DNA from: Nostoc carneum NIES-2107 | GTDB taxonomy: Bacteria > Cyanobacteriota > Cyanobacteriia > Cyanobacteriales > Nostocaceae | Assembly (NCBI GenBank): GCA_002368155.1 | Contig: AP018180.1 | Location: forward strand, 6,156,908-6,220,907 | Reading direction: 5' to 3' | Length of the DNA stretch: 64,000 nucleotides | Shown here: piece after piece, positions 46,443 to 58,791 of the stretch | How positions within the stretch are numbered: the first letter of the stretch is position 1 | Layout: each line of letters opens with the position of its first letter | The notes under the pieces: model-generated | Told to the model about the DNA's origin: nothing | Databases searched by the model: none | The model's input: only the letters and a program-made list of their open reading frames with translations | Translations under genes and position numbers: made by a program

Positions 46443-46709
46443 ATGGCTAATATCAACATTGCCAACTTACATCAAAGAGATAATCTTGATTATCTTGATG
46501 AGCTACACAATAGCGAAATCAACCATGTAATCGGTGGAGCAGTAACAATTGCTGTTCCAGTGACTGAAAGTAATCAACAATTCTTAGACTTGTTCCACAC
46601 TCTGAACGATCCTAACAGAGGGCCAATAACCATCAACTTTGGTAACAGCGCTTCTGTATCAAATCCGGTTATCTCTAACCCTTTCGACAAAGGAATTAAT
46701 CCTTTCTAA
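46443..46709 (+). CDS. Putative RiPP/bacteriocin precursor with double-Gly leader (divergent)
   Basis: An 88-residue peptide. The 32-residue leader is hydrophilic (LHQRDNLDYLDELHNSEIN) and ends HVIGG, a double-glycine site for C39 peptidases. The 56-residue core (AVTIAVPVTESNQQ... to NPFDKGINPF) is Asn/Pro/Ser-rich with no cysteine. It shares the opening MANI with the other precursors but the core is unrelated. The assignment rests on the leader and on the C39 exporter in the same locus. Confidence 0.7.
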   Translation: MANINIANLHQRDNLDYLDELHNSEINHVIGGAVTIAVPVTESNQQFLDLFHTLNDPNRGPITINFGNSASVSNPVISNPFDKGINPF

Positions 46710-46766
46710 TATCAAAGGCATCAATTCTTGAGAAAATTATAGGTGGGCAATGCCCACCCTACTACA

Positions 46767-46920
46767 TATAGGACTCATATTTGATTTTTGAAGTTCACAT
46801 AGTAGGATGCGTTAGCGACAGCGTAACGCATCAGTGTCAATGCTTTTCATGCGTTACGGCTTACGCCTAACGCACGCTAAATTAATGAGATTTTTTTAGA
46901 AATCAAATCGGATTTCTATA
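46767..46920. mobile_element. MITE-like element, family 2, copy 1
   Basis: A non-coding repeat starting TATAGGACTCATATTTGATT and ending AAATCAAATCGGATTTCTATA, imperfect terminal inverted repeats. The interior carries palindromes (GGATGCGTTAGCGACAGCG; TGCGTTACGGCTTACGCC). A shorter copy is at 49815-49922. Confidence 0.7.
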
Positions 46921-47055
46921 TTTATATATAAAATATATAACCCCTCTACAGTAATTTTTAAATAAATGCCGACATAGTTAGGGGTACAACAATGTTGTGC
47001 CTTTTAAAATGGCTGTGATAATAGCAGCATTCTTTCCTTGTTATTATAGCGTTTC

Positions 47056-47658
47056 TCAGTCTGGTGAAGTACAGTAGCAACAATGGGTAAACCAATTATA
47101 AATATCATTCAATGAAACTTGATTAAAAGCAGTTTCAATCGCTTTTGCTAAATCTGGATAACTTCTAGCTCCAATAGAACGGAGTAGATTTTTAACTTTT
47201 GACCAACAATTTTCTATTGGCGAAAAATCAGGAGAATATGGTGGTAAATAAATCAATTTTGCTCCGGCGGACTCGATTAGTTTTTCAACCTCTTTGCCTT
47301 TATGAATTGAGCAATTGTCCATGACTACGTAGGCACCCTCCCACAGTTTTGGAACTAATTTTTGAGAAATATAAGCTTCAAATGTCAGCCCGTCAGTTGC
47401 ACCTAAAATGCTATATTGACTAATCAAACCACAAAGACCAATTGCACCAATTATAGAGACATTTTTACTACGCTTCTGAGGTCGTGAGCCATGCGCTCTT
47501 TTACCCTTTTTGGCACGGGCTGAATGTCTTATTAAAGATAGATTAGCTCCTGCTTCGTCAAGAAATATAAGGTTTTCAGTGGGTATACCATTAATTTTAA
47601 GCCAAAATTCTACTCTTAATGATTGAACTCTTTCAGTCTCTTTTTCGTCAGCGTGCAA
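47056..47658 (-). CDS. IS630 transposase, catalytic part (orfB frame)
   Basis: About 200 codons encoding the DDE domain: D in LIFLDEAGANL, D in VVMDNCSIHKGKE and E in YSPDFSPIENCWSKVKN, so the triad looks complete. It is reached by a -1 slip on a run of nine A in orfA, which would read VKKKTLHADEKETERVQS. The stop lies in the left terminal repeat. Confidence 0.88.
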   Translation of the reverse strand: MHADEKETERVQSLRVEFWLKINGIPTENLIFLDEAGANLSLIRHSARAKKGKRAHGSRPQKRSKNVSIIGAIGLCGLISQYSILGATDGLTFEAYISQKLVPKLWEGAYVVMDNCSIHKGKEVEKLIESAGAKLIYLPPYSPDFSPIENCWSKVKNLLRSIGARSYPDLAKAIETAFNQVSLNDIYNWFTHCCYCTSPD

Positions 47659-48011
47659 TGTTTTTTTTTGACGCTGATTTCCATTTTTTTGAGCATTCGG
47701 TCTACTGTAGCGATACTAATCGTTATCCCTATTTTATCAAAGAGGCTCTCACGAATTTCTTCCAAAGTGGCATCGTTCTTGGCTTCTACTATTTCAAAAA
47801 GAACATCCAATTGTTCCTCATTTAACTTTGGTGGAGTTTGCTTAGTTCTGGTTTTTGGAGCAATATTGTTTGTTTCTCTATATTGTTTTAGTAGTTTCTC
47901 AATAAAACTTAAACTGACACAAAATCTTTTGGCTAAATCACGTTGTGATATTTCACCTATCTTATAGGTATCAAATATTTTTTGGCGAAAGTCTAGGGAA
48001 TATGGTTTCAT
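47616..48011 (-). CDS. IS630 transposase, DNA-binding part (orfA frame)
   Basis: 131 codons with HTH motifs (YKIGEISQRDLAKRFCVSLS; IGITISIATVDRMLKKM). It ends in the alternative frame just past the A9 slippage site and overlaps orfB by ~40 bases, the usual IS630 programmed frameshift layout. Confidence 0.88.
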   Translation of the reverse strand: MKPYSLDFRQKIFDTYKIGEISQRDLAKRFCVSLSFIEKLLKQYRETNNIAPKTRTKQTPPKLNEEQLDVLFEIVEAKNDATLEEIRESLFDKIGITISIATVDRMLKKMEISVKKKHCTLTKKRLKEFNH

Positions 48012-48089
48012 TTTTATACTTGAGGAGATGCTCAGATTTAATCTTACAGTCTAAGTTATAAGCGTACTCCACTAGCCTGAGAAACGCTA

Positions 48090-48514
48090 TAAAAAACTTC
48101 AATCAATTGAAAAGAGATTTCCAAGCTCATAAATAAAGTTATAGATTGCAGCCCACTTGATGGACTTGTTCTATTAGTCCAAAACTGATGTTTTGGATAG
48201 TATAAGAATGAAATTGAGATTTAAAATATTGCATAACAAAATATTTATCCACCTACAGATATATTTGAAATTTACTAATAGCATTAAATATCTAACAAAG
48301 ATAGTCTTGAATTTATATCTTTTTATAGGTGTTCAGAAAAATCAATATTTTTATCGATAAATCCAGACATAAGTGTTATTTTTTAGTCTATTTCAGCAAG
48401 TATTTTCTCTTGATTTTTAAATTTTGCTGCTTAAGAATAGCAAGTGTGAGGTTAAGTAAATTAATCTGACATATCAACAAATAAAGCTCCAATCATTTCC
48501 CAGGAGAACTAACA
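48090..48514. other. Leader region of the tandem precursor genes
   Basis: About 425 bp of AT-rich DNA. Probably holds the promoter of the precursor pair; AGGAGAACTAACA immediately precedes the first start. No gene seen. Confidence 0.45.
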
Positions 48515-48808
48515 ATGGCTAATATTAAAGTTTCTGAATTAAGCCCCGCAGGTTCTGAATTATTCCAAGATTCTGAAAGCTTTTTGAACGACCTGAACGA
48601 TATGGACACCACATCAGTTCATGGTGGTGAAGGCGCTAATTATGTTCCATATTTACAGTTCGGTTCTAAGCTACTTGAATACAGTGTAGTTGGACTTGGT
48701 ATCAGTACAATTACATCTTTAGTAGGAAGCTTTAGCAGCACTGGTACAGGTGTTGGTGGCGGTGTTGGTACTGATAATGGTGTTGGCGGTGGTACTATTA
48801 CTTTCTAG
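48515..48808 (+). CDS. RiPP/bacteriocin-like precursor peptide, tandem copy A1
   Basis: A 97-residue peptide. Leader 1-38 contains SESFLNDLNDMDTTSVHGG, a double-glycine cleavage site. Core 39-97 begins EGANYVPYLQFGSKLLEYSV, then a hydrophobic Ser/Thr-rich stretch (GISTITSLVGSFSSTG) and a Gly-rich tail. The core has about 14 Ser/Thr and no Cys. AGGAG is well placed. I recall this type as a cyanobacterial bacteriocin-like family. It would be modified by the kinase/HopA1 pair and cut and exported by the C39 transporter. Confidence 0.82.
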   Translation: MANIKVSELSPAGSELFQDSESFLNDLNDMDTTSVHGGEGANYVPYLQFGSKLLEYSVVGLGISTITSLVGSFSSTGTGVGGGVGTDNGVGGGTITF

Positions 48809-48870
48809 TTTTTGTTGTTGACTACATAGTAGTCCACCAACGAAAGCTGAATGTAAATTGGAAAGAAGCA

Positions 48871-48906
48871 GCAAGATAAAGTTATTCATAAAAAGCTTTA
48901 TCTTGC
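48871..48906 (+). other. Hairpin between precursor copies
   Basis: An 11-bp perfect stem (GCAAGATAAAG / CTTTATCTTGC, 14-base loop) between the two copies. No T run follows, so partial termination or mRNA protection is possible. Confidence 0.55.
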
Positions 48907-48969
48907 CTTCCCAAGCTCATAATATTTCCCAGAACAGACAATTACTTAATTTCCCAGGAGAACTAAACA

Positions 48970-49242
48970 ATGGCTAATATCAAAGTTTCGGAATTAAGCC
49001 CTGCAGGTTCTGAATTATTCCAAGATTCCGAAAGCTTTTTGAACGACCTGAACGATATGGACACCACATCAGTTCATGGTGGTGAAGGTGCTAATTATGT
49101 TCCATATTTACAGTTCGGTTCCAAGCTACTTGAATATAGTGTAGTTGGACTTGGTATCACTACAATCGCATCTTTAGTAGGAACATTTAGCAGCACTGGT
49201 AATGGTGTTGGTGGCGGTATTGGTGGTGGAACTACTATCTAG
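48970..49242 (+). CDS. RiPP/bacteriocin-like precursor peptide, tandem copy A2
   Basis: A 90-residue near-copy of the preceding gene. Residues 1-63 are identical although the DNA differs at about seven synonymous positions. From residue 64 the core changes (ITTIASLVGTFSSTGNGV) and the Gly-rich tail is shorter. Leader 38 residues ending HGG, core 52 residues, no Cys. The ribosome-binding region (CCCAGGAGAACTAAACA) is duplicated too. Confidence 0.82.
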   Translation: MANIKVSELSPAGSELFQDSESFLNDLNDMDTTSVHGGEGANYVPYLQFGSKLLEYSVVGLGITTIASLVGTFSSTGNGVGGGIGGGTTI

Positions 49243-49313
49243 CATTTTGTTGCTGATTGCGTAGTATTAACCCAACAATAGCTTAATTTTAATTAGGCGA
49301 AATAGTTAGCAGA

Positions 49314-49335
49314 ATGAAGCCTTGAATGGCTTCAT
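49314..49335 (+). other. Hairpin after copy A2
   Basis: Stem ATGAAGCC / GGCTTCAT with a six-base loop, no T run. Confidence 0.5.
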
Positions 49336-49372
49336 CCTGCCCACTCAAATCATAATTATTTGCACACCGAAA

Positions 49373-49651
49373 ATGAATAGGATCGTAATTTTTGATTTGC
49401 ACCAATCTGGCTCTAATGAAATTAACCATTCTGAGAGCTTTATAGAAGATGTAACTGAAATAGATTCCATGTGTATACATGGTGGCGAAGGCTATGCTTT
49501 TAGCGAGTTCCTCAACTTTGGTGTTAAGGTTTTGGAGTATGCGTTAATAGGGTTTGCAATTTCTAGTATTGTCTCCCTAGTGCAGATGTTTCTCGCTCCT
49601 CGACAAAACCAAAATAGCTCGCTTCCTACTATATATCCGCCTATAAGTTAA
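49373..49651 (+). CDS. RiPP/bacteriocin-like precursor peptide, divergent copy A3
   Basis: A 92-residue peptide starting MNRIVIFDLHQSG. The leader is again exactly 38 residues (SESFIEDVTEIDSMCIHGG) and the core opens EGYAFSEFLNFGVKVLEYAL, clearly homologous to A1/A2, but ends without a Gly-rich tail (APRQNQNSSLPTIYPPIS). The single Cys (34) lies in the leader. No good Shine-Dalgarno precedes ATG 49373, so expression may be weaker or coupled. Confidence 0.75.
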   Translation: MNRIVIFDLHQSGSNEINHSESFIEDVTEIDSMCIHGGEGYAFSEFLNFGVKVLEYALIGFAISSIVSLVQMFLAPRQNQNSSLPTIYPPIS

Positions 49652-49679
49652 AGTTTGACTCGCAAAGACAATAACATTG

Positions 49680-49751
49680 CCTGTTATCGGTTGGTTACTG
49701 ATGCTGAAATCAGGATTTCACCGCATAACCGATAACAGGTTTTATTATTTT
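49680..49751 (+). terminator. Probable terminator after the precursor genes
   Basis: A 13-bp perfect stem (CCTGTTATCGGTT / AACCGATAACAGG) with a 34-base loop that has its own small inverted repeat, followed by TTTTATTATTTT. It would separate precursor transcripts from the downstream modification genes. Confidence 0.7.
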
Positions 49752-49814
49752 ACTCTTAATATAGAATAAAAATTTCATTTGATTTTGCAGAGTAATACTC
49801 ATCAATATTAATTC

Positions 49815-49922
49815 TATAGGACTCATATTTTATTTTTGAAGTTAACGTAGGATGCGTTAGCGATAGCGTAACGCATCCATGCCAAAGCTGAGATTTTTTT
49901 AGAAATCAAATCAGATTCATAT
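49815..49922. mobile_element. MITE-like element, family 2, copy 2
   Basis: Shares both ends with 46767-46920 (TATAGGACTCATATTT at left, TTTTTTTAGAAATCAAATC at right) and the GGATGCGTTAGCGATAGCG palindrome, but lacks ~45 bp of the interior. Confidence 0.7.
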
Positions 49923-50041
49923 ATACAACTCGTTTTATATTTTCAAATATAACTAGGCTGGGCAATAAATACCTAGTAATAAACAGCAAATTTATGGTGA
50001 TTTTGAGATTAATACATAACACAAGCTAAAAACTTAAAGCC

Positions 50042-51220
50042 ATGAGATTTATCTTAAGTCCTCAAAATGTTTTTGACTACTTGATTGAAAAAGGAATCTG
50101 TATTCCAGAGCAGCAAGGGATGAGCAATATCGAAATTAAACCTGCTAAAAATTTCAACTTGCTGCTAACATTACCAGAGGGGAAAAAACTGCTAATCAAG
50201 CAAGAACGCCAGAAAAACAAAGAAAAAACCGCAGTTGAATTTTATCGAGAGTGGCAAATTCACAGTTTGTTGCGTAAAATGCCTGAATTTAGCGATTTGC
50301 TCTCTTCTTTATCAGAGCCAATATATTTTGATGTCGAAAATGCAATTATTGTTTTCAATTATCTAGATCAATATCAAGATTTAGCATATTTCTATACGCA
50401 AGAGAATATCTTTCCTTTAGAAATTGCAGCTACAATTGGAGGGACTTTAGGCTCAATTCACCAACTGACTATCAACCGTTCAGAATATAGAGAATTGCTG
50501 CCATCAGAAATATTTGTTCACTATGATTTGCAGTTAGTTTCAAGTGTAGAAAGATTAACTCCAGAAGTGGCTAGATCACTTTCTGCTGATGCATTGAAAT
50601 TCTTTGCCCTGTATCAGCGTTTCGATAGCTTAAGACAGGCGATCGCACAGTTAATTAATTCTATCAAACCTTGTTGTCTAAGCCATAATGACTTGAAGCT
50701 CAACAATATTTTACTAGCTCATAATTGGCAAGAAACGAGGGAGCAGAAATCACCCTCAGCGAACAGTATGATTCGCTTGATTGATTGGGAAAAAGCAACT
50801 TGGGGCGATCCAGCTTACGATTTAGGCATACTTATCTCTAGTTATTTACAAGCTTGGTTGCTAAGTTTAATGACAAGTAAAACCATTAGCTTAGAAGAAA
50901 CATTACGCCTAGCTAAAACTCCTTTGGAATTAGTTCAGCCTTCTATTGCTGTATTAACAAAAGCTTATCTCCACAACTTTCCAGAAATCTTAAAACTACG
51001 TCCAGATTTTATAGAGCAAGTCGTGCAATTTGCTGGGCTAGGTTTAATTTTAACTATTCTCTCAATTATTCAGCACCAAAAAATATTTAGTAATCAAGGG
51101 ATATGTATGCTTCAAGTGGCGAAGAGTTTATTGTCTCGTCCGGAACAATCAATTTCTACTGTATTTGGTGTCACAGCTATTGAACTTACTCGTCGCCCAG
51201 TTTTGTATGCAATTAAGTAA
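50042..51220 (+). CDS. APH-fold kinase-like protein, likely RiPP Ser/Thr kinase
   Basis: A 392-residue protein kinase/aminoglycoside-phosphotransferase fold protein. The catalytic loop is CLSHNDLKLNNILL (HxDxxxxN) near 220 and the metal-binding Asp is in IRLIDWEKATWGDPAYDLG near 243, so it looks active. A HopA1-domain gene follows 22 bp later. This pair matches the kinase and lyase that dehydrate peptide Ser/Thr in class V lanthipeptides (LxmK/LxmY) and thioamitides (TvaC/TvaD). Substrates would be the precursors just upstream. A small-molecule kinase is the alternative. Confidence 0.78.
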   Translation: MRFILSPQNVFDYLIEKGICIPEQQGMSNIEIKPAKNFNLLLTLPEGKKLLIKQERQKNKEKTAVEFYREWQIHSLLRKMPEFSDLLSSLSEPIYFDVENAIIVFNYLDQYQDLAYFYTQENIFPLEIAATIGGTLGSIHQLTINRSEYRELLPSEIFVHYDLQLVSSVERLTPEVARSLSADALKFFALYQRFDSLRQAIAQLINSIKPCCLSHNDLKLNNILLAHNWQETREQKSPSANSMIRLIDWEKATWGDPAYDLGILISSYLQAWLLSLMTSKTISLEETLRLAKTPLELVQPSIAVLTKAYLHNFPEILKLRPDFIEQVVQFAGLGLILTILSIIQHQKIFSNQGICMLQVAKSLLSRPEQSISTVFGVTAIELTRRPVLYAIK

Positions 51221-51242
51221 TGTTAGTTATAGGTAGATAATT

Positions 51243-52361
51243 ATGCAATTGCTAGATTTGCTGCCACAGCAATCGTTAAATTATTCCACAAAGCAACTAT
51301 TAGCTACTTTACAAGATATTGCTAATAAAGTTGAAATTCAATCTAACTTTAGTATTCGTCATCCAGATTATCAGCTTTTAGAATTACCAGAAGAAGTTAT
51401 TAGCCGCTTTCAGGAATTACCACTACCTTTGCAGTACAAAGTTTTGCAATCGCAATTGACGAGCTTTCTTTACCATATTTATTACAATGGCGCTTTCCGC
51501 AATGCTTTGGCTATTAATGCCAAAGAAATTGATGCCACAATGCTGCAGAATTTGGAAAATAATACTTATTTAGGCGTAGATGTTGATTTTTACGATCGCC
51601 TACACGCAGCTAATAGTGGTAAAGGCTATTTTGATGATGGTTGGCAAGTGCTGAGAGTTGAGAGTGATGGCACTTTAGCTGTTAAAAAGGGAGAGATTAC
51701 CTTACATATACAACGCGATCGCCATCTTCATTGTAAGCAAGTGAATGCAACTATTGGCGATGTGGTAGCAGTCAAAATGGCACCTTATTTGACGCAAAAC
51801 GGATTTTATTTAGCAGTGGGCAATTTAGGGCAGTATAGTTCTCTACATCGAGGGCATGATCGCCAATTAGTGCGGATCTATTTTAATTTAAGCCCTGAAG
51901 GTGCAGTTGCAATCATGGGTAGCCTCACAAAACAACTCAACAAAATCCCTATCCCCTTTACCTTTAAGGCGCTATATAATCCTTCTGACTATGAGCGTTA
52001 TGATACCGCAGTGCTTTACATCGAAAAAGGTTACTATGCAAACCTTTGGCCTGTACTGCAATCTGTGTATGCAGAACATCAGTTTTATTTTGGCGCAGAA
52101 GTACCTTTATTTACCAAATTTTTAGCACCAGGAATCGCTTTAGCAGAAGAACCTCATAGCAAGTTTGCAGGGAAAGAGAGTTTTGGCTTAAATCGCTGTC
52201 GAATTGTTACCAATGGATTGCTAAATGCATGGCAACAAGGAAAAGAATCAACAGAAAATCGGATGCTATCAATTCTGCAGCATTTTGCCCTACAGCAAAT
52301 CGAAATTCAACGCCCTTATCTTAATCCAGACTCAGAGGATATCTACACCGTATTAGAGTAA
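51243..52361 (+). CDS. HopA1-family protein, likely phospho-Ser/Thr lyase of the RiPP pathway
   Basis: A 372-residue protein with the HopA1 (type III effector-like) domain spanning most of its length. Conserved blocks are NTYLGVDVDFYDRLHAANSG, GYFDDGWQVLRVESDG, VRIYFNLSPEGAVAIM, IPFTFKALYNPSDYERYD, LAPGIALAEEP and FGLNRCRIVTNGLLNAW. In thioamitide and class V lanthipeptide clusters HopA1-like proteins act with an APH-like kinase to eliminate phosphate from Ser/Thr, giving dehydroamino acids. The adjacent kinase gene and GG-leader precursors support that role here. Confidence 0.82.
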   Translation: MQLLDLLPQQSLNYSTKQLLATLQDIANKVEIQSNFSIRHPDYQLLELPEEVISRFQELPLPLQYKVLQSQLTSFLYHIYYNGAFRNALAINAKEIDATMLQNLENNTYLGVDVDFYDRLHAANSGKGYFDDGWQVLRVESDGTLAVKKGEITLHIQRDRHLHCKQVNATIGDVVAVKMAPYLTQNGFYLAVGNLGQYSSLHRGHDRQLVRIYFNLSPEGAVAIMGSLTKQLNKIPIPFTFKALYNPSDYERYDTAVLYIEKGYYANLWPVLQSVYAEHQFYFGAEVPLFTKFLAPGIALAEEPHSKFAGKESFGLNRCRIVTNGLLNAWQQGKESTENRMLSILQHFALQQIEIQRPYLNPDSEDIYTVLE

Positions 52362-52675
52362 TCAAGTCCTTTGCGTTTCAGTTTCACTCTTAATGAATAT
52401 TGCAAAATGCAATGATTCTCTACAACTTCATTGCTAGCAAAAAAGGTGCAGTACGATCCACACCAGGTGGTTGTTAAAGTGGGAATGTCTTTTAGGCACA
52501 CTTTGCGATCGCCTGTTTTCTTTTTTAATTTACCGCAAATAGACGCAGATAATTTTTTGGGATATAGGTATTTGGTAATATAGAAAAATGGTGATGCTCC
52601 CTAATCTTAAAAAGTGCGTTAATGTGGTATTTGGTTATGCAGATAACGCGCCTAACGAATGCTGATAAATGTAAT
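52362..52675. other. Convergent gap between modification and export genes
   Basis: About 310 bp between the 3' ends of the HopA1-type and PpiC-like genes, with one HIP1 site near 52507. No gene or convincing terminator seen. Confidence 0.45.
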
Positions 52676-53443
52676 TTAAGCTGGTTTTGCTAAATCTTGA
52701 TTATCTAATTCCATCTGCGCTACAACTTTGATTTCTGATAATTGTTGCTTAACCCAAGCAGAAAATAAATCTCCTAATATCTGTAAGCGCAACTGATCGG
52801 TTAATTGCTGTTGAATAAATTCTTCAACCAAAATGAGATGTACCCCTTTTTGAGTGACAATTGGCTTGAGAAACTGCGGCGGACGAGCAGCAAAAACTGC
52901 GGCAGCAATTTCTGCTTTAAAATCTCTACGGTAGCGTATTCCCTGATAGCCACCAGTACGGCGCAGTTCTGCTTCTGTAATATATTGACGAGCTATTTCA
53001 GAAAAAGTAATTTCATTTTCTTGGAGGGCATAAAACATTTCTAGCGCTAAATCTTCGTCATCTAAAATGACTTCGTAGGTAACAGCACCGAGAAAATTTA
53101 ATTGATGTTGAACATAAAACTTTTCTACGTGTTCTGCAAATAAATGATTCGCTAACTTTGCAGAAATAATATTAGCTTGAGCCATCTCTTCAAAATCATC
53201 AAGGGAAAGATAATGTTTTTGCAACCAAGCCCAAGTATCATCAGCTTTAACTAATTTATGGGCTAATCGCAGGCCATCTGCTGCTTGCTGAAGTTCTTTC
53301 GGCTCGACTGTAATCCCTGCTTTTTTAGCTGCTTCGGCAATAATTCTCCGGGTAGCTATTGCTTCTAATACATCTGGAATTTGACAGGTAAGCTTCATAT
53401 GGTGCAGAATTTCCACAGCAGAAACATTCATCATTTTGGACAT
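52676..53443 (-). CDS. PpiC/SurA-like peptidyl-prolyl isomerase of the export operon
   Basis: A 255-residue protein with a helical SurA-like N-terminal part (about 10-125) and a parvulin-type domain (AVTYEVILDDEDLALEMFYA, ITFSEIARQYI, RTGGYQGIRYRRDFKAEIA, PIVTQKGVHLILVEEF). No signal peptide, so it may act in the cytosol on the peptide substrate. Start ATG 53443 has AGGAG seven bases upstream. SurA-like genes recur beside C39 exporters in cyanobacterial bacteriocin clusters. Confidence 0.82.
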   Translation of the reverse strand: MSKMMNVSAVEILHHMKLTCQIPDVLEAIATRRIIAEAAKKAGITVEPKELQQAADGLRLAHKLVKADDTWAWLQKHYLSLDDFEEMAQANIISAKLANHLFAEHVEKFYVQHQLNFLGAVTYEVILDDEDLALEMFYALQENEITFSEIARQYITEAELRRTGGYQGIRYRRDFKAEIAAAVFAARPPQFLKPIVTQKGVHLILVEEFIQQQLTDQLRLQILGDLFSAWVKQQLSEIKVVAQMELDNQDLAKPA

Positions 53444-53485
53444 AATCCAACTCCTCATAAACGTCAATCAGCAATCTCAAAATTT

Positions 53486-55024
53486 TTAAAGCTCAATACC
53501 ACCTTTTTGTAATTTCTTGAATGGATCTAAAACAAAATCAATTACGCGACGTTGGCGAATAATTACTTCTGCTGTTGCTGTCTGTCCAGGTGCTAAGTTA
53601 ATTCTTTTATTTGCTGTTTGAATATAACGCTGATCTAAAGTAATATCCAACTCATAAGTTTCAATTCTGCCTGCGTTAGTTTCTTGAATTTTAGAATCAG
53701 GAGAAATCCAACTGACTCTGCCTTTAACTACTCCATAATCTTGGAAAGGATAGGCATCAAATTTAGTTTTTACAGGCATACCCACACGCAAAAATCCAGT
53801 TTGACTGCTAGGCATCTGAGCTTTCAAAATAAAATCAGAATTTTGCGGTGCAATTTGAGCAATCATTTGCCCCGGTTGCACAACAACCCCAGGTTTTTGG
53901 ATAGGTAATTGGAAAATTGTGCCATCAATAGGTGAACGCACTACTCGTTGCGAAAGCTGAAATTTGTAACCCAGTATCTGACTTTTAGTTTGAGCAATTT
54001 CTGTGTTGAGAGAGCCTATTTGCGTTTGTAAATCTTTTAATTGTTCTTGATTTTTTAGTAGAGCTAGCTTACCAGTATGCACCACACTTTGATAACTACT
54101 TAACTGCTCTTGTAACCGCAATTTTGCTTGTTGAATGTCTGCCTGAATTTGATTAATAACTGCTTGATAACGACTTTGTTGTTCTTTTAAACGTAACTTT
54201 GCCTGTTTTTGATCCGATTCAGCAATAATCTGTGATTTTTGACTTTCGTCACCCATTCTCTGCAATTCTACAACCTTAATTTGGGGAACTGCTCCCATTT
54301 TCCAAAGTTTACGAAAACGTTCAACTTCTGCTAAATCACGATTTAAGCGAATTTTACTTAATTTGTAACCAGTTTGGCTACTATAAATATTTTGTTTCGC
54401 TTGATCAACTTGAGCTTGATTTTCTAATTTTTGTAAATTAAAAGTACTCTGTTTGGCATCAAAATTTTGCTGTGCTTGTTGCACTTGCGACATTTTTTCT
54501 AATTCTTGAGAGCGGTTTTGTTGCTCTTGCACGTTAATTGACAGCATGACTTGATTTTTCAGTAAATCTAACTGTGCAATTCGGTTTTGTTGCCCTTCTA
54601 GCTTTGTTTGTGTCTGCTGTAAATCAGTTTGTAAATCATTAGATTCTAGTTCTACTAATACTTGTCCGGCGGCGACAATTTGCCCTTCTTTGACTTTTAC
54701 AGATGTAATATTTCCCGGTACAGATGCATCTAATCGTTGTGCCGAACCTTTCGGTTCTATTCTGCCTCTAGCAGCGCCAGTTTCATCAACTTTAGAAAGC
54801 ATTGACCAAGGTAAAACAATACCTGCAAAACCTAAAATTAAATATAGTAAAGAGCGTGTCCAAATCCTTGGTAAAGCATCTAATAGTTCCTCTGTACCGT
54901 AATACCAATCTCTAGCTTCATCTGCTAAGGAAGGTTGATAATTCCGCTCAGTTAAATTGCTAGCTGGTTCTAATTGTTGTTGCGTAGTTAGAATTGCTGA
55001 TGAATTTTCAAAGCGACTTGGCAT
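53486..55024 (-). CDS. HlyD-family membrane fusion protein
   Basis: A 512-residue periplasmic adaptor. It has one N-terminal transmembrane helix (LLYLILGFAGIVLPWSML near 65), a split lipoyl/biotinyl-like domain (GNITSVKVKEGQIVAAGQVL; VVRSPIDGTIFQLPIQKPG), long Gln-rich coiled coils (about 120-350) and a beta-barrel end (LAPGQTATAEVIIRQRR). It connects the ABC exporter to an outer-membrane channel. It lies 35 bp after the exporter gene. AAGG nine bases upstream supports ATG 55024. Confidence 0.92.
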   Translation of the reverse strand: MPSRFENSSAILTTQQQLEPASNLTERNYQPSLADEARDWYYGTEELLDALPRIWTRSLLYLILGFAGIVLPWSMLSKVDETGAARGRIEPKGSAQRLDASVPGNITSVKVKEGQIVAAGQVLVELESNDLQTDLQQTQTKLEGQQNRIAQLDLLKNQVMLSINVQEQQNRSQELEKMSQVQQAQQNFDAKQSTFNLQKLENQAQVDQAKQNIYSSQTGYKLSKIRLNRDLAEVERFRKLWKMGAVPQIKVVELQRMGDESQKSQIIAESDQKQAKLRLKEQQSRYQAVINQIQADIQQAKLRLQEQLSSYQSVVHTGKLALLKNQEQLKDLQTQIGSLNTEIAQTKSQILGYKFQLSQRVVRSPIDGTIFQLPIQKPGVVVQPGQMIAQIAPQNSDFILKAQMPSSQTGFLRVGMPVKTKFDAYPFQDYGVVKGRVSWISPDSKIQETNAGRIETYELDITLDQRYIQTANKRINLAPGQTATAEVIIRQRRVIDFVLDPFKKLQKGGIEL

Positions 55025-55059
55025 GATTTTTGACCTTTGATGCAATTTTTAAGTAATAC

Positions 55060-58000
55060 TCAAACAGTTTGTGCCAATTGTTGTTGATTGAGGTAATAGT
55101 AATAACCTTTGCTTTTAATTAATTGCTCATGATTACCGCTTTCTACTAATGCACCTTTATCTAGAACTAAAATCAAATCTGCATTGCGGATGGTAGAAAG
55201 ACGATGAGCAATAATTAGCGTCGTCCTTCCTTGGGTAATGGTTTTGAGATTATTTTGAATGATGCGTTCTGATTCCGCATCAAGATGACTTGTGGCTTCA
55301 TCTAATAGTAATAAAGCCGGATTTCCTAACAAAGCACGGGCAATTGCTAACCTTTGCCTTTGTCCACCCGATAATAGTCCACCACCTTCCCCAATCGGTG
55401 TTTCATACCCCATTGGTAATTGCTGAATAAATTCATCGGCTCCAGCTAAACTTGCAGCTTCGATGATTTCTTCTTGGGTAGATTCTGGATGAGCAATGCT
55501 AATATTTTCGCGAATTGTACCACCAAATAAAAAGGTATCTTGATCGACAACACCAATTTGAGAACGCAGTGACTTTAAAGCCACACTCGTTAAATCGTAA
55601 TTGTCAATTAAGACTTTGCCTTCGGTGGCAGGATAAAGACCTAAAATTAATTTAGAAAGAGTAGTTTTACCAGAACCACTACGCCCTACCAGAGCTACAG
55701 TTTGCTCTGGTTTTACCTCAAAACTGATATTTTCGAGGACATTTAGCTCACTTTCTGGGTGGTAGCGGAATGTCACATTATCGAACCGGATATAACCACG
55801 CAATCTAGGGAGAAATTGCTTTGGTGCAGCTTGTAAATCTTCTTCGGGTTCTGTTTCCAAAACATCATTAATCCGCTCGCTAGAAATCATCACTTCTTGT
55901 AATTGATTCCACAGCACAGCTAACCTTTGGAATGGTCGAATGACATTACCTAACAACATATTGAAGGCAATTAACTGCCCAATTGTCAGTTGATTTTGAA
56001 TTACCAACCAAGCCCCAAACCACAGTAAGCTAGTAGTCGCTACAGTTTCGATACTGGCGCTAGCAATTTGCAGTTGATTACTAATAATTTGTCCCGAAAA
56101 GCCTTTTTTAATTGATTGATGTAACCTTTCCTCCCATTTCCACCTCACGGTCTGTTCAATTGACATTGAACGAATAGTACTAATACCTGTGAGGGCTTCA
56201 ATTAAGTAACTACTTTCAGCCGCGATCGCATTAAATATTTCTCGCGATATCCGGCGTAAAAATGGTGTTGCCAAAAAGGTAACTAATAATATTGGTGGCA
56301 AAATTACCAATACTAATAGTGCCATCTTCCAACTGTACCAAAACATCAAGCCTATATAGATGAACACAGTCAGTAAATCGAGAAAGATTGACAGTGATTC
56401 ACCTGTTAAAAAACGTTGAATTTTATGATTTTCTTGGAGGCGGGAAATAATATCGCCAACGTAACGCGACTCAAAAAATGATAAAGGTAATCGGAAGGTG
56501 TGTTTAATAAAACCCACAATCATCGATAAAGTAATGCGGTTCGCCGTATGGTCTAGCAAATATTGCCGCAATCCATTAATTGCAACTCGAAACAGTCCAA
56601 AAATTAATAAACCTAAACCGACAGCATTTAAAGTGAGAGTACTACCTTGGACAATTACCCGATCTAAAAGTAGCTGGGTTAATAGTGGTGTCACCAATCC
56701 AAACACCTGAATACATATCGAAGCCACCACCACTTCTAGCAACACTACCCAATGAGGTTTAACTAACTCAAAAAATTGCCAAAATGGTGTATTTGCTTCC
56801 TCACTTTCTTTTAACTCAGATGTGGGTTGTAATAACAATGCATAGCCAGTCCATCTAGCTTGAAATTCCCGCGGCGTAAGGGTGCGTTGTCCAATCGCCG
56901 GATCACCTACAATCACCCGTTTTTTGCTAATTTCATAAACGACAATGTAATGCTTGCCTTCCCAATGTGCGATCGCAGGTAGCGGTTGTTGTGCTAATTT
57001 ATCAAAACTAGCTCTGACTGGCCTGGTAGAAAAGCCAATACTTTCAGCAGCAGCAGCTAAACCCCGCAATGATGCACCACTCCGGCTAGTATTCGCTATA
57101 TCTCGCAGCCGATTTAAACTCAGGTTTTTACCCCAATAGCGCCCAATCATTACCAAACAAGCAGCCGCACAATCGGAAGCGCTTTGCTGTTGAAAGAAGG
57201 GGTAGCGCTTGGTAATTCTTCCCCACCAATGAGTAAAAGTTACCTTGGGGTTAGGAAAGTAATTGCGGCGTTTGGGGGGTTTTCTCTTGCTTGGCTGAGA
57301 TGAGGTAGGGAAGGAATAAGCACTAGGACGGGAGGACACAGAAAAATCATCTCTAGATCTGATTGATTCCCCATCTTCAGTAACTGTATCTTCCTCGTCC
57401 TCATCTTCTGAGTCTTTAGCATCAGCAGTCACGAACTCTGATAATTGCGGTAAATGTTGCAGTGCTGTTTGCCAAGCAGAATGACTGAGAGTGTAAATGA
57501 TTGTAGGTTGAATTGCTTGCCAACCAGTACCTCGATGACTGCGGTTAGAAGGAGTATAAATTTTGCCTGGGGTAAGAGTACGCCCATCGGAATGCAGTAA
57601 TTCCCCACTTCGCAACAACCATAACTTACATTCTTGCGTTAGTTGTGGTGGTAAGTAGCCAATTTCTAGATTGTGCCGTTGAAATAGTGCTAGAACTTTT
57701 AACATCTCCTCAACAAGAGCAATTCGCGGCGCTGGGGAATTTTCATAACATGACATCAGTAATTCCCATGCTTCAGCTTGACGATGTAAATGCTCCTGAA
57801 TATTGGGATATTTGCTGATTAAATTTTGTAAAATCTCGCCCTTAATATAACCCAACTTTAAATTAGTAGAAGCTCTAGCATTATAAGGGCTAAAATCTGA
57901 CTCAGGAAATAGAGTTAGCTGACCAAATATACCTCCGACGGACAAGGTAGCGATTAAATTATCGGCAGTATCTAGCAGCCGTACTTTACCATTTAAAACT

Positions 58001-58170
58001 AAATAAATTCCCGGTGCTGCACCTGCTGAACGCCAAAACAACTTAGCTATTTTTGGTTCGTGGATTACTATTGCTTGTACAGATTCTGCCAATTCCTGTT
58101 CTGAAATATTTGCACCCAAAATTTGGGTGAGTTGTTCAGCCAGCTTTGCTGGGGAAAATTCTGAAGGCAT
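55060..58170 (-). CDS. ABC exporter with C39 peptidase and N-terminal cNMP-binding-like domains
   Basis: A 1,036-residue peptidase-containing transporter. Residues ~10-130 form a cyclic-nucleotide-binding-like barrel (YLVLNGKVRLLD, IFGQLTLFPESD). A second weaker barrel lies at ~180-255 (LWLLRSGELLHSDGRTLTPG). After an acidic/Ser linker comes a C39 peptidase (about 327-455) with Cys in SASDCAAACL, His in GKHYIVVYE and Asp in VGDPAIG. Then six transmembrane helices and an ATPase: Walker A LVGRSGSGKTT near 827, LSGGQRQRLAIARALL, LLLDEATSHLD and the IIAHRLS H-loop. It would cut the precursors after Gly-Gly and export the cores. Confidence 0.95.
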   Translation of the reverse strand: MPSEFSPAKLAEQLTQILGANISEQELAESVQAIVIHEPKIAKLFWRSAGAAPGIYLVLNGKVRLLDTADNLIATLSVGGIFGQLTLFPESDFSPYNARASTNLKLGYIKGEILQNLISKYPNIQEHLHRQAEAWELLMSCYENSPAPRIALVEEMLKVLALFQRHNLEIGYLPPQLTQECKLWLLRSGELLHSDGRTLTPGKIYTPSNRSHRGTGWQAIQPTIIYTLSHSAWQTALQHLPQLSEFVTADAKDSEDEDEEDTVTEDGESIRSRDDFSVSSRPSAYSFPTSSQPSKRKPPKRRNYFPNPKVTFTHWWGRITKRYPFFQQQSASDCAAACLVMIGRYWGKNLSLNRLRDIANTSRSGASLRGLAAAAESIGFSTRPVRASFDKLAQQPLPAIAHWEGKHYIVVYEISKKRVIVGDPAIGQRTLTPREFQARWTGYALLLQPTSELKESEEANTPFWQFFELVKPHWVVLLEVVVASICIQVFGLVTPLLTQLLLDRVIVQGSTLTLNAVGLGLLIFGLFRVAINGLRQYLLDHTANRITLSMIVGFIKHTFRLPLSFFESRYVGDIISRLQENHKIQRFLTGESLSIFLDLLTVFIYIGLMFWYSWKMALLVLVILPPILLVTFLATPFLRRISREIFNAIAAESSYLIEALTGISTIRSMSIEQTVRWKWEERLHQSIKKGFSGQIISNQLQIASASIETVATTSLLWFGAWLVIQNQLTIGQLIAFNMLLGNVIRPFQRLAVLWNQLQEVMISSERINDVLETEPEEDLQAAPKQFLPRLRGYIRFDNVTFRYHPESELNVLENISFEVKPEQTVALVGRSGSGKTTLSKLILGLYPATEGKVLIDNYDLTSVALKSLRSQIGVVDQDTFLFGGTIRENISIAHPESTQEEIIEAASLAGADEFIQQLPMGYETPIGEGGGLLSGGQRQRLAIARALLGNPALLLLDEATSHLDAESERIIQNNLKTITQGRTTLIIAHRLSTIRNADLILVLDKGALVESGNHEQLIKSKGYYYYLNQQQLAQTV

Positions 58171-58188
58171 AAACTCACCTCAAAAGAA

Positions 58189-58791
58189 TTAGTTATTGCT
58201 GCTACTCAAATTCAGCGACCATTGCAAACTCGGCTCGCAAGGTAATTGCAAGTCATCAATAGTAATTGCAGAATCTTTGACATGATTAGCTACTCCTGGG
58301 CGGCTATGATTTCTCTGTTTTGTAGATAAACCCATTTGTTTCAGTAGCCGATTGATGTGGCGATCGCTAATTTCTACACCAAATTCATTTGCTAAATGTT
58401 TGCTTAACCAAAGAGCAGTCCAACAATGAAAAGAATAGCCATAATCCCTCGGACTATGATTTACTAATTCCTTCAATCTTTCTAAGTATGCCTCGTTAGC
58501 ACTACGGGGTCTACCTATTGGTTGCTCATGCCATTTATGAGCTAAACCAGACTTAGCCATACCAATCCAATAGCGCGCCATATGCTGAGAACAACCTAGT
58601 AACTGGCAGATTTGAATTTGAGTTTTTCCCCTATCTGCCAGCAACATAATTTCAATCCGCCGACGGTATTCTGAGGGCAGATCTATTTGCAGATTCTTAA
58701 GTAATACCTTACGCTGAAAAGCCGTGAGAAACTTGCTTTCAGCCTGCTCATCATTATCAAATTCGTAAAGTTCGCTGAGGTAACTGGACAT
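58189..58791 (-). CDS. HTH protein resembling an IS630 transposase N-terminus, likely regulator
   Basis: A 200-residue protein made of two helix-turn-helix units: EYRRRIEIMLLADRGKTQ with ICQLLGCSQHMARYWIG, then SFHCWTALWLSKHLANEFGV with ISDRHINRLLKQMGL. This is the DNA-binding half of IS630-type transposases, but no DDE catalytic domain follows. The C-terminus is a unique tail (AITIDDLQLPCEPSLQWSLN). It is the first gene of the export operon, 18 bp before the transporter. A domesticated transposase acting as transcription factor is inferred. ATG 58791 is preferred over a longer start. Confidence 0.75.
   Translation of the reverse strand: MSSYLSELYEFDNDEQAESKFLTAFQRKVLLKNLQIDLPSEYRRRIEIMLLADRGKTQIQICQLLGCSQHMARYWIGMAKSGLAHKWHEQPIGRPRSANEAYLERLKELVNHSPRDYGYSFHCWTALWLSKHLANEFGVEISDRHINRLLKQMGLSTKQRNHSRPGVANHVKDSAITIDDLQLPCEPSLQWSLNLSSSNN

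What the first reader, a model, noticed from the sequence alone, without database searches (positions are those of the whole stretch)
46443..58791. RiPP locus combining a kinase/HopA1 dehydratase pair with cysteine-free double-Gly precursors
Four small GG-leader peptides, an APH-fold kinase, a HopA1-domain protein, a C39-ABC exporter, HlyD, a PpiC-like protein and an HTH regulator lie together. Kinase plus HopA1 is the split dehydratase of class V lanthipeptides and thioamitides (known families). The predicted cores have many Ser/Thr but no Cys, and no cyclase, LanC-like, YcaO or decarboxylase gene is visible. Lanthionine rings therefore cannot form within a core. The inferred product is an exported peptide with dehydroalanine/dehydrobutyrine or unusual crosslinks, possibly a distinct RiPP class in cyanobacteria.
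Basis: partly seen in the sequence, partly recalled or inferred. Interest (0 to 1): 0.88.

Follow-up and report, generated by a model that had tools for sequence, protein, structure and literature searches.

The report
Cysteine-free kinase/HopA1 peptide cluster
A cyanobacterial gene cluster makes small exported peptides that a kinase-lyase enzyme pair probably dehydrates; the peptides lack the cysteine needed for the usual sulfur rings, and although this broad cluster family has been listed before, its product is not known to me.

Summary
Window 46443-58791 encodes four double-Gly peptides, a kinase (K), a HopA1 protein (Y) and, on the other strand, a PpiC-like protein, HlyD, a C39-ABC exporter and an HTH protein. 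Predicted folds of K and Y are nearest to LxmK and LxmY, the lexapeptide dehydratase; catalytic residues are kept. The locus recurs in Nostocaceae as alpha, beta (often tandem) and gamma peptides followed by K-Y. The window's beta/gamma core family is almost Cys-free (1 Cys in 7,000 residues of 164 distinct cores; other double-Gly peptides in the fetched neighbourhoods: 144 in 9,623). Of 156 convincing matches in 37 genomes, 141 lie within 7 kb of a HopA1 gene. No lanthionine can form within these cores, so the likely product is an exported, dehydrated peptide without thioethers. Dehydration is inferred, not shown. The broad kind is known: Eyles 2021 described cyanobacterial 'Family 1A' HopA1/phosphotransferase clusters with double-Gly leaders and cores without conserved Ser, Thr or Cys. 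New here: the Cys-free three-part subfamily with a shared core motif, a sister pair clade lacking the lyase base, and one HopA1-aldo/keto-reductase fusion.

The parts
46443..46709 (+). alpha: double-Gly peptide, 88 aa, Cys-free core of 56 aa
   Evidence: leader profile E 5e-9; homologue first in the array of Nostoc sp. T09 (45% identity, dN/dS 0.42)
48515..48808 (+). beta1: double-Gly peptide, 97 aa, Cys-free core of 59 aa with K-x-x-E and S-F-S
48970..49242 (+). beta2: near-copy of beta1, 90 aa, Cys-free core of 52 aa with K-x-x-E and T-F-S
49373..49651 (+). gamma: double-Gly peptide just upstream of the kinase, Cys-free core of 54 aa with K-x-x-E but without the S-[FY]-S motif; one Cys lies in the leader
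   Evidence: start by homology
50042..51220 (+). K: APH-fold kinase, LanK/LxmK-like; K53, E70, H215, D217, N222, D248 kept
51243..52361 (+). Y: HopA1-domain lyase, LanY/LxmY-like; R211, K242, R252, Y259 (and probably H40) match CaoY R187, K219, R229, Y236 (H57)
52676..53443 (-). PpiC-like (SurA-type) protein, putative peptide maturation or chaperone
   Evidence: Pfam Rotamase; TIGR04500 below cut-off
53486..55024 (-). HlyD-type periplasmic adaptor
   Evidence: TIGR01843 219.9 bits, cut-off 208.65
55060..58170 (-). C39 peptidase-ABC exporter with N-terminal cyclic-nucleotide-binding domain (long type)
   Evidence: Pfam C39, ABC_membrane, ABC_tran, cNMP_binding
58189..58791 (-). HTH protein, related to the N-terminal part of IS630 transposase, probable regulator
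   Evidence: recurs beside the exporter; dN/dS 0.08
47041..48095 (.). IS630 element inserted between alpha and beta1 (not part of the system)
   Evidence: inverted ends 32 nt, 88%; NCBIfam IS630 113.1 and 56 bits in its two ORFs; no blastn match in the T09 locus

Best explanation
A ribosomal-peptide pathway of the kinase/HopA1 kind acting on Cys-free substrates. K phosphorylates Ser/Thr in the cores of the double-Gly peptides (most likely beta and gamma) and Y removes the phosphate, leaving dehydroalanine or dehydrobutyrine. The C39-ABC/HlyD exporter cuts after the double Gly and exports the core, perhaps helped by the PpiC-like protein. With no Cys and no cyclase gene in the locus, the product stays free of thioethers: a dehydrated, amphipathic-helix peptide, probably working as a set of different peptides. 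Shown here: gene content, conservation, folds, kept catalytic residues, tight linkage of peptides and pair, near-absence of Cys. Inferred: dehydration, which residues, cleavage, export, the roles of PpiC and HTH, and biological activity.
For: Predicted Y (mean pLDDT 85) is nearest to LxmY and predicted K (86.5) to LxmK. A sequence alignment of Y with LxmY (9dk1_B, E 1.6e-9) puts Arg, Lys, Arg and Tyr of the lyase site in register; mutation of the CaoY equivalents of the Lys and first Arg abolishes or nearly abolishes elimination (PMC9486802). The K242 base is kept in 59 of 82 pairs, including all 28 of the window's group. 28 of 28 pairs of that group have double-Gly peptides within 7 kb, 25 of them with no Cys in any core. 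The beta/gamma core profile matches 26 of 291 genomes of the order at E <= 1e-4 (99 matches, 93 within 7 kb of a HopA1 gene) and, in 11 further genomes not used to build it, 57 matches, 48 within 7 kb. Cores of this type: 164 distinct, 7,000 residues, 1 Cys; the other double-Gly peptides in the same neighbourhoods: 255 distinct, 9,623 residues, 144 Cys in 82 cores. [ST][FY][ST] in 122 and K-x-x-E in 139 of the 164.
Against: No product is known; nothing here shows that any Ser/Thr is dehydrated. Fifteen of 156 beta/gamma matches are satellites far from a HopA1 gene, so some may be exported unmodified or modified in trans. The exporter is not always beside the pair: HlyD and ABC in 11 of 24 near-full-length loci of the window's group, PpiC in 19 (the window's own ABC falls outside its fetched locus and counts as missing). 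The window's gamma lacks the S-[FY]-S motif. In the named sample the Cys-free rule is weaker: 38 of 61 loci with upstream peptides are wholly Cys-free, because that sample contains other peptide types. All 29 Nostocaceae in the order sample carry HopA1, so co-occurrence by genome says little inside that family; the evidence is the linkage by locus. The core profile was built from Cys-free members.
Confidence: 0.66

Rival explanations
1. The double-Gly peptides are exported unmodified (bacteriocin-like, or matrix/signal peptides like EbfG of Synechococcus), and K-Y modifies something else or only a minor peptide.
For: C39-ABC, HlyD and SurA clusters with many precursors are common in cyanobacteria (PMC3140520 Results read); double-Gly peptides of S. 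elongatus act in biofilm formation (PMC4997328, start of abstract only); satellite beta genes exist without K-Y.
Against: 141 of 156 beta/gamma matches sit within 7 kb of HopA1; gamma precedes K-Y directly; all satellites found are in genomes that also have a beta/gamma array beside HopA1; lyase residues are kept in this group and lost in the clade without peptides.
Confidence: 0.16
2. Phosphorylation or dehydration is transient or incomplete: dehydro residues are later reduced (to Ala or D-Ala type residues) or crosslinked by a partner encoded elsewhere.
For: A divergent aldo/keto reductase follows Y directly in 9 loci, lies 1.6 kb downstream in one (L099) and is fused to HopA1 in L092, which fits a step acting on the dehydrated residue.
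Against: No such gene lies in the window's locus or in the large beta/gamma-type subgroup; none of the loci with it was shown to make such a product; the match to Aldo_ket_red is weak (26.7-32.4 bits, cut-off 24).
Confidence: 0.12
3. A true class V lanthipeptide locus, with Cys supplied by an undetected precursor elsewhere in the genome (for example the LanM locus L004).
For: L004 in the same genome has K-Y-LanM beside Cys-rich double-Gly peptides.
Against: L004 has its own K-Y pair and exporter; the three LanC domains of the genome lie in ORFs of 1,085-1,166 aa, none in the window; the window's own cores are Cys-free and are conserved beside this pair.
Confidence: 0.06

Closest known systems
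HopA1/phosphotransferase 'Family 1A' RiPP-like clusters of Cyanobacteria (Eyles et al. 2021, PMC8153245; passages read)
   Same: HopA1 beside a phosphotransferase, Cyanobacteria, double-Gly leader, several non-identical precursors, cores without conserved Cys
   Different: Family 1A pools many peptide types; the subfamily here has a shared core (K-x-x-E ... [ST][FY][ST]) and an alpha/beta/gamma order. I could not check whether this window or its sequences are in their supplementary data.
Class V lanthipeptides (lexapeptide LxmKY, cacaoidin CaoK/CaoY, pristinin A3)
   Same: split kinase plus HopA1 lyase, same folds, same lyase residues
   Different: no Cys in the cores; no LanC, cysteine decarboxylase or second APH-type protein among the ten proteins of the locus
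Cyanobacterial 'bacteriocin' gene cluster groups I/II (Wang et al. 2011, PMC3140520; Results read)
   Same: long-type C39-ABC with nucleotide-binding domain, HlyD, SurA, several precursors; M16 peptidases in group II, which also stand upstream of alpha in 8 of 28 loci of the window's group
   Different: the main text mentions no kinase or phosphotransferase; its Table S2 was not readable here
Kintamdin and linaridins (dehydroamino-acid RiPPs; PMC10880069 passages)
   Same: kinase/lyase type dehydration leaving dehydro residues in the product
   Different: other precursors and other tailoring; kintamdin carries thioether rings

Membership tests
Eyles Family 1A (cyanobacterial HopA1/phosphotransferase clusters) | HopA1 gene beside a phosphotransferase gene | tested here: met
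   82 of 85 HopA1 genes examined have an adjacent kinase
Eyles Family 1A (cyanobacterial HopA1/phosphotransferase clusters) | conserved double-Gly leader and several non-identical precursors | tested here: met
Eyles Family 1A (cyanobacterial HopA1/phosphotransferase clusters) | cores without conserved Ser, Thr or Cys | tested here: inconclusive
   no Cys, as stated; but within the beta/gamma subfamily an [ST][FY][ST] motif is frequent (122 of 164)
Eyles Family 1A (cyanobacterial HopA1/phosphotransferase clusters) | presence of the peptides in the published sequence network | not testable with these tools
Class V lanthipeptide | LanK kinase | tested here: met
   fold nearest LxmK, E 1.1e-14; NCBIfam LxmK equivalog cut-off not reached (81.5 of 315 bits)
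Class V lanthipeptide | LanY lyase with catalytic Lys and Arg | tested here: met
Class V lanthipeptide | Cys in the core to form (methyl)lanthionine | tested here: not met
   0 Cys in 221 core residues
Class V lanthipeptide | LanC (Vb) or LanX plus LanD (Va) in the cluster | tested here: not met
   ten proteins scanned, none of these; one APH protein only; LanC domains of the genome lie outside the window
Class V lanthipeptide | (methyl)lanthionine in the product | not testable with these tools
   needs mass spectrometry
Thioamitide | YcaO/TfuA thioamidation genes | tested here: not met
   absent from the ten proteins scanned with Pfam
Wang 2011 group I/II bacteriocin cluster | long-type C39-ABC, HlyD and SurA-type protein with precursors | tested here: met
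Wang 2011 group I/II bacteriocin cluster | M16 peptidase (group II) | tested here: not met
   not found in the 20 kb locus L006; found in 8 of 28 loci of its group

The most novel reading that the evidence does not exclude
A RiPP class built on the kinase/HopA1 dehydratase in which thioether chemistry was never intended: sets of three Cys-free, helix-forming peptides (alpha, beta, gamma) in which dehydrated Ser at the S-[FY]-S motif is either the functional end point or is attacked by a non-Cys nucleophile such as the conserved Lys of K-x-x-E (lysinoalanine-type link), with some relatives instead reducing the dehydro residue by a reductase that can be fused to the lyase.
Probability: 0.2. Interest if true: 0.8.

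Novelty: new variant of a known kind. Interest (0 to 1): 0.52.

Why it matters
Every kinase/HopA1 product described in the papers I read is discussed with Cys-derived rings (class V lanthipeptides, thioamitides, kintamdin). Here is a widespread cyanobacterial subfamily that keeps an intact-looking dehydratase but has almost no Cys in its substrates, so what a split dehydratase is for when no thioether can follow becomes testable with a compact gene set and strains that can be named (Nostoc sp. T09 holds the closest locus seen). The clade that keeps the pair but has lost the lyase base, and the HopA1-reductase fusion, give natural variants for the same question.

Tried and rejected
Class V lanthipeptide as the filing: rejected because Cys in the core was tested and not met. 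Calling the window's group a clade: rejected on rereading; it is two sub-clades (5 rows, support 90; 23 rows, support 86) whose union is not resolved beside group B (28 rows, 99), and the window is on a long branch (0.59). Chance absence of Cys in the window alone: cannot be rejected (221 residues), hence the family test. Genome-level co-occurrence as proof: rejected, since all 29 Nostocaceae of the order sample have HopA1. Four weak matches of the core profile (G041, G064, G093, G169; E 9e-4 to 0.01, in open frames of 321-813 aa) were dropped as noise; three of these genomes have no HopA1. A regular expression for the lyase base in the 80 named loci failed (all '?') and is not used.

Limits of the sample: the 80 neighbourhoods L038-L117 are the 80 best-scoring listed HopA1 matches other than G000's, out of a longer list; three HopA1 genes without an adjacent kinase by my rule (L055, L086, L094) were left out of the tree. 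The 80 named loci are the best 80 of 444; I printed 22 of them and counted all 80. Core boundaries come from a simple rule (first GG after residue 18, otherwise a related pair), not from experiment.

Literature: ten searches. Read as passages: PMC8153245, PMC10880069, PMC12291118, PMC12328550, PMC13060382, PMC7794033, PMC4558948; passages plus sections 6 and 7 of PMC9486802; Results section and passages of PMC3140520; the rest only as listings. Supplementary files could not be read, and subscription papers are mostly not held, so earlier notice of this subfamily is possible.

Full report
What is there. Ten genes in 46443-58791 were confirmed: four double-Gly peptides, kinase K and HopA1 protein Y on the plus strand, then on the minus strand a PpiC-like protein, HlyD, a C39-ABC exporter with an N-terminal cyclic-nucleotide domain, and an HTH protein. 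An IS630 element sits between the first and second peptide gene; it has no match in the closest named relative, Nostoc sp. T09 (L118), whose locus has the same order with one beta gene. Between window and T09, amino-acid identity is 45-68% for the peptides, 70% for K, 80% for Y and 82-88% for the other four genes, with dN/dS 0.08-0.42, so the genes are maintained.

The enzymes. AlphaFold models from window and named-locus alignments reach mean pLDDT 85.0 (Y) and 86.5 (K). Foldseek ranks the lexapeptide dehydratase LxmKY first for both: Y to LxmY E 2.6e-17, 21% identity; K to LxmK E 1.1e-14, 17%. For Y the next hits are the HopA1 effector (about 4e-7) and, weakly, class III synthetase lyase domains and phosphothreonine lyases (0.01-0.25). 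For K other APH-fold kinases score almost as well (5-methylthioribose kinase, about 1e-13), so the fold of K alone is not specific. A sequence match of Y to LxmY (1.6e-9) aligns R211, K242, R252 and Y259 with identical residues; the spacing (31, 10, 7) fits CaoY R187, K219, R229, Y236 (spacing 32, 10, 7; residue numbers from PMC9486802). H40, invariant in 82 of 82, probably corresponds to CaoY H57, but that is by position only. Mutating K219 in CaoY stops elimination and leaves phospho-peptide; R187A nearly abolishes it.

Survey. HopA1 (PF17914) occurs in 91 of 291 genomes of the order and three times in the window's genome: the window, a locus with K-Y-LanM and Cys-rich double-Gly peptides (L004), and a pair with no peptides (L005). 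A tree of 82 K-Y pairs shows a clade of 21 pairs without any double-Gly peptide within 7 kb, in which the lyase base K242 is Gln (19) or Glu (2) in every member; a clade of 28 pairs (group B) whose peptides mostly lie downstream; and 28 further pairs (group A, with the window; two sub-clades not resolved as one) whose peptides mostly lie upstream; five pairs fall elsewhere. Double-Gly peptides lie within 7 kb of 28 of 28 pairs in A, 23 of 28 in B, 5 of 5 others, 0 of 21 in the orphan clade: 56 of 82. In A 25 of 28 loci have no Cys in any core (exceptions L097, L108, L115); in B 9 of 23 (Fisher p 2.4e-4, not corrected for relatedness).

The peptide family. 25 of 28 group A loci have at least two peptides upstream on the same strand. 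In most of them the order is alpha (Arg-rich or otherwise different), beta (one to six copies), gamma, then K-Y. Beta and gamma share a core with K-x-x-E and a later S-[FY]-S region. A profile of 21 such cores (A2) matches 30 of 291 genomes; 26 at E <= 1e-4 with 99 matches, all in genomes with HopA1, 93 within 7 kb of it; the other four are weak and lie in long frames. In a phylum sample it matches 36 of 386 genomes at E <= 1e-3, 35 of them Nostocaceae and one the weak G064. In the 11 Nostocaceae not seen before, all have HopA1 and 48 of 57 matches lie within 7 kb. The 15 satellites are single genes or arrays without a pair nearby, in genomes that also hold an array beside HopA1; one satellite stands just upstream of an HTH gene of the window's kind (L230).

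Cys. Across all fetched neighbourhoods, profile-type cores number 164 distinct with 1 Cys in 7,000 residues; the other double-Gly peptides number 255 with 144 Cys in 9,623 residues. The profile was built from Cys-free members, so some bias remains. The named sample as a whole is more mixed: 42 of 78 loci with peptides are wholly Cys-free, 38 of 61 with upstream peptides, because it contains peptide types other than beta/gamma.

Reading. The simplest account is a kinase/HopA1 dehydratase working on Cys-free, probably helical peptides that a C39 exporter cleaves and releases. The product would carry dehydro residues but no thioether. Dehydration, sites and activity are inferred. The retained lyase base in peptide-bearing groups and its loss in the clade without peptides agree with the lyase being used here.

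Known or new. Eyles 2021 found 1,340 HopA1 proteins, 96% beside a phosphotransferase, and named 'Family 1A' in Cyanobacteria with double-Gly leaders and variable cores without conserved Ser, Thr or Cys. The window fits. Liang 2022 collected class V precursors only if they contained Cys, which would pass over these. [quoted passage not shown] So the broad kind is known by bioinformatics; the Cys-free three-part subfamily, the lyase-base-less sister clade and the HopA1-reductase fusion were not seen in the passages I read or in ten searches, which do not cover supplementary files or most subscription papers. I file it as a new variant of a known kind.

Noticed in passing
L005 and 20 further loci (L053, L062, L064, L067, L070, L073, L075, L076, L077, L081, L083, L088, L089, L093, L100, L102, L106, L112, L113, L114): A clade of 21 kinase/HopA1 pairs keeps both genes but has Gln or Glu in place of the lyase base; Tyr259 is His in 10 and Asp in one; no double-Gly peptide within 7 kb and no exporter in the 19 near-full-length loci. 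Function unknown.
   Followed up: partly
L092:9272-11401 (+): One 709-aa frame joins a HopA1 domain (203.6 bits) to an aldo/keto-reductase-like domain (29 bits, cut-off 24); in nine other loci such a reductase gene follows HopA1 directly. May act on the dehydrated residues.
   Followed up: partly
L004:7768-19858: In the window's own genome a kinase, HopA1, a LanM (DUF4135 plus LanC), two Cys-rich double-Gly peptides and a PpiC/HlyD/C39-ABC set lie together: class II and class V type enzymes side by side.
   Followed up: no
L038, L039, L040, L051, L066, L078, L080, L110: M16 peptidase genes stand upstream of the alpha peptide in 8 of 28 loci of the window's group (Pfam checked for one).
   Followed up: no
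L228, L229, L230: Beta-type peptide genes without a kinase/HopA1 pair nearby; the one in L230 stands just upstream of an HTH gene of the window's kind.
   Followed up: partly
window 58189-58791 (-): The HTH protein resembles only the N-terminal part of IS630 transposase, recurs beside the exporter and is under purifying selection: looks like a transposase domain turned regulator.
   Followed up: partly
window 47041-48095: IS630 element with its transposase in two overlapping frames, 32-nt inverted ends, between alpha and beta1.
   Followed up: yes
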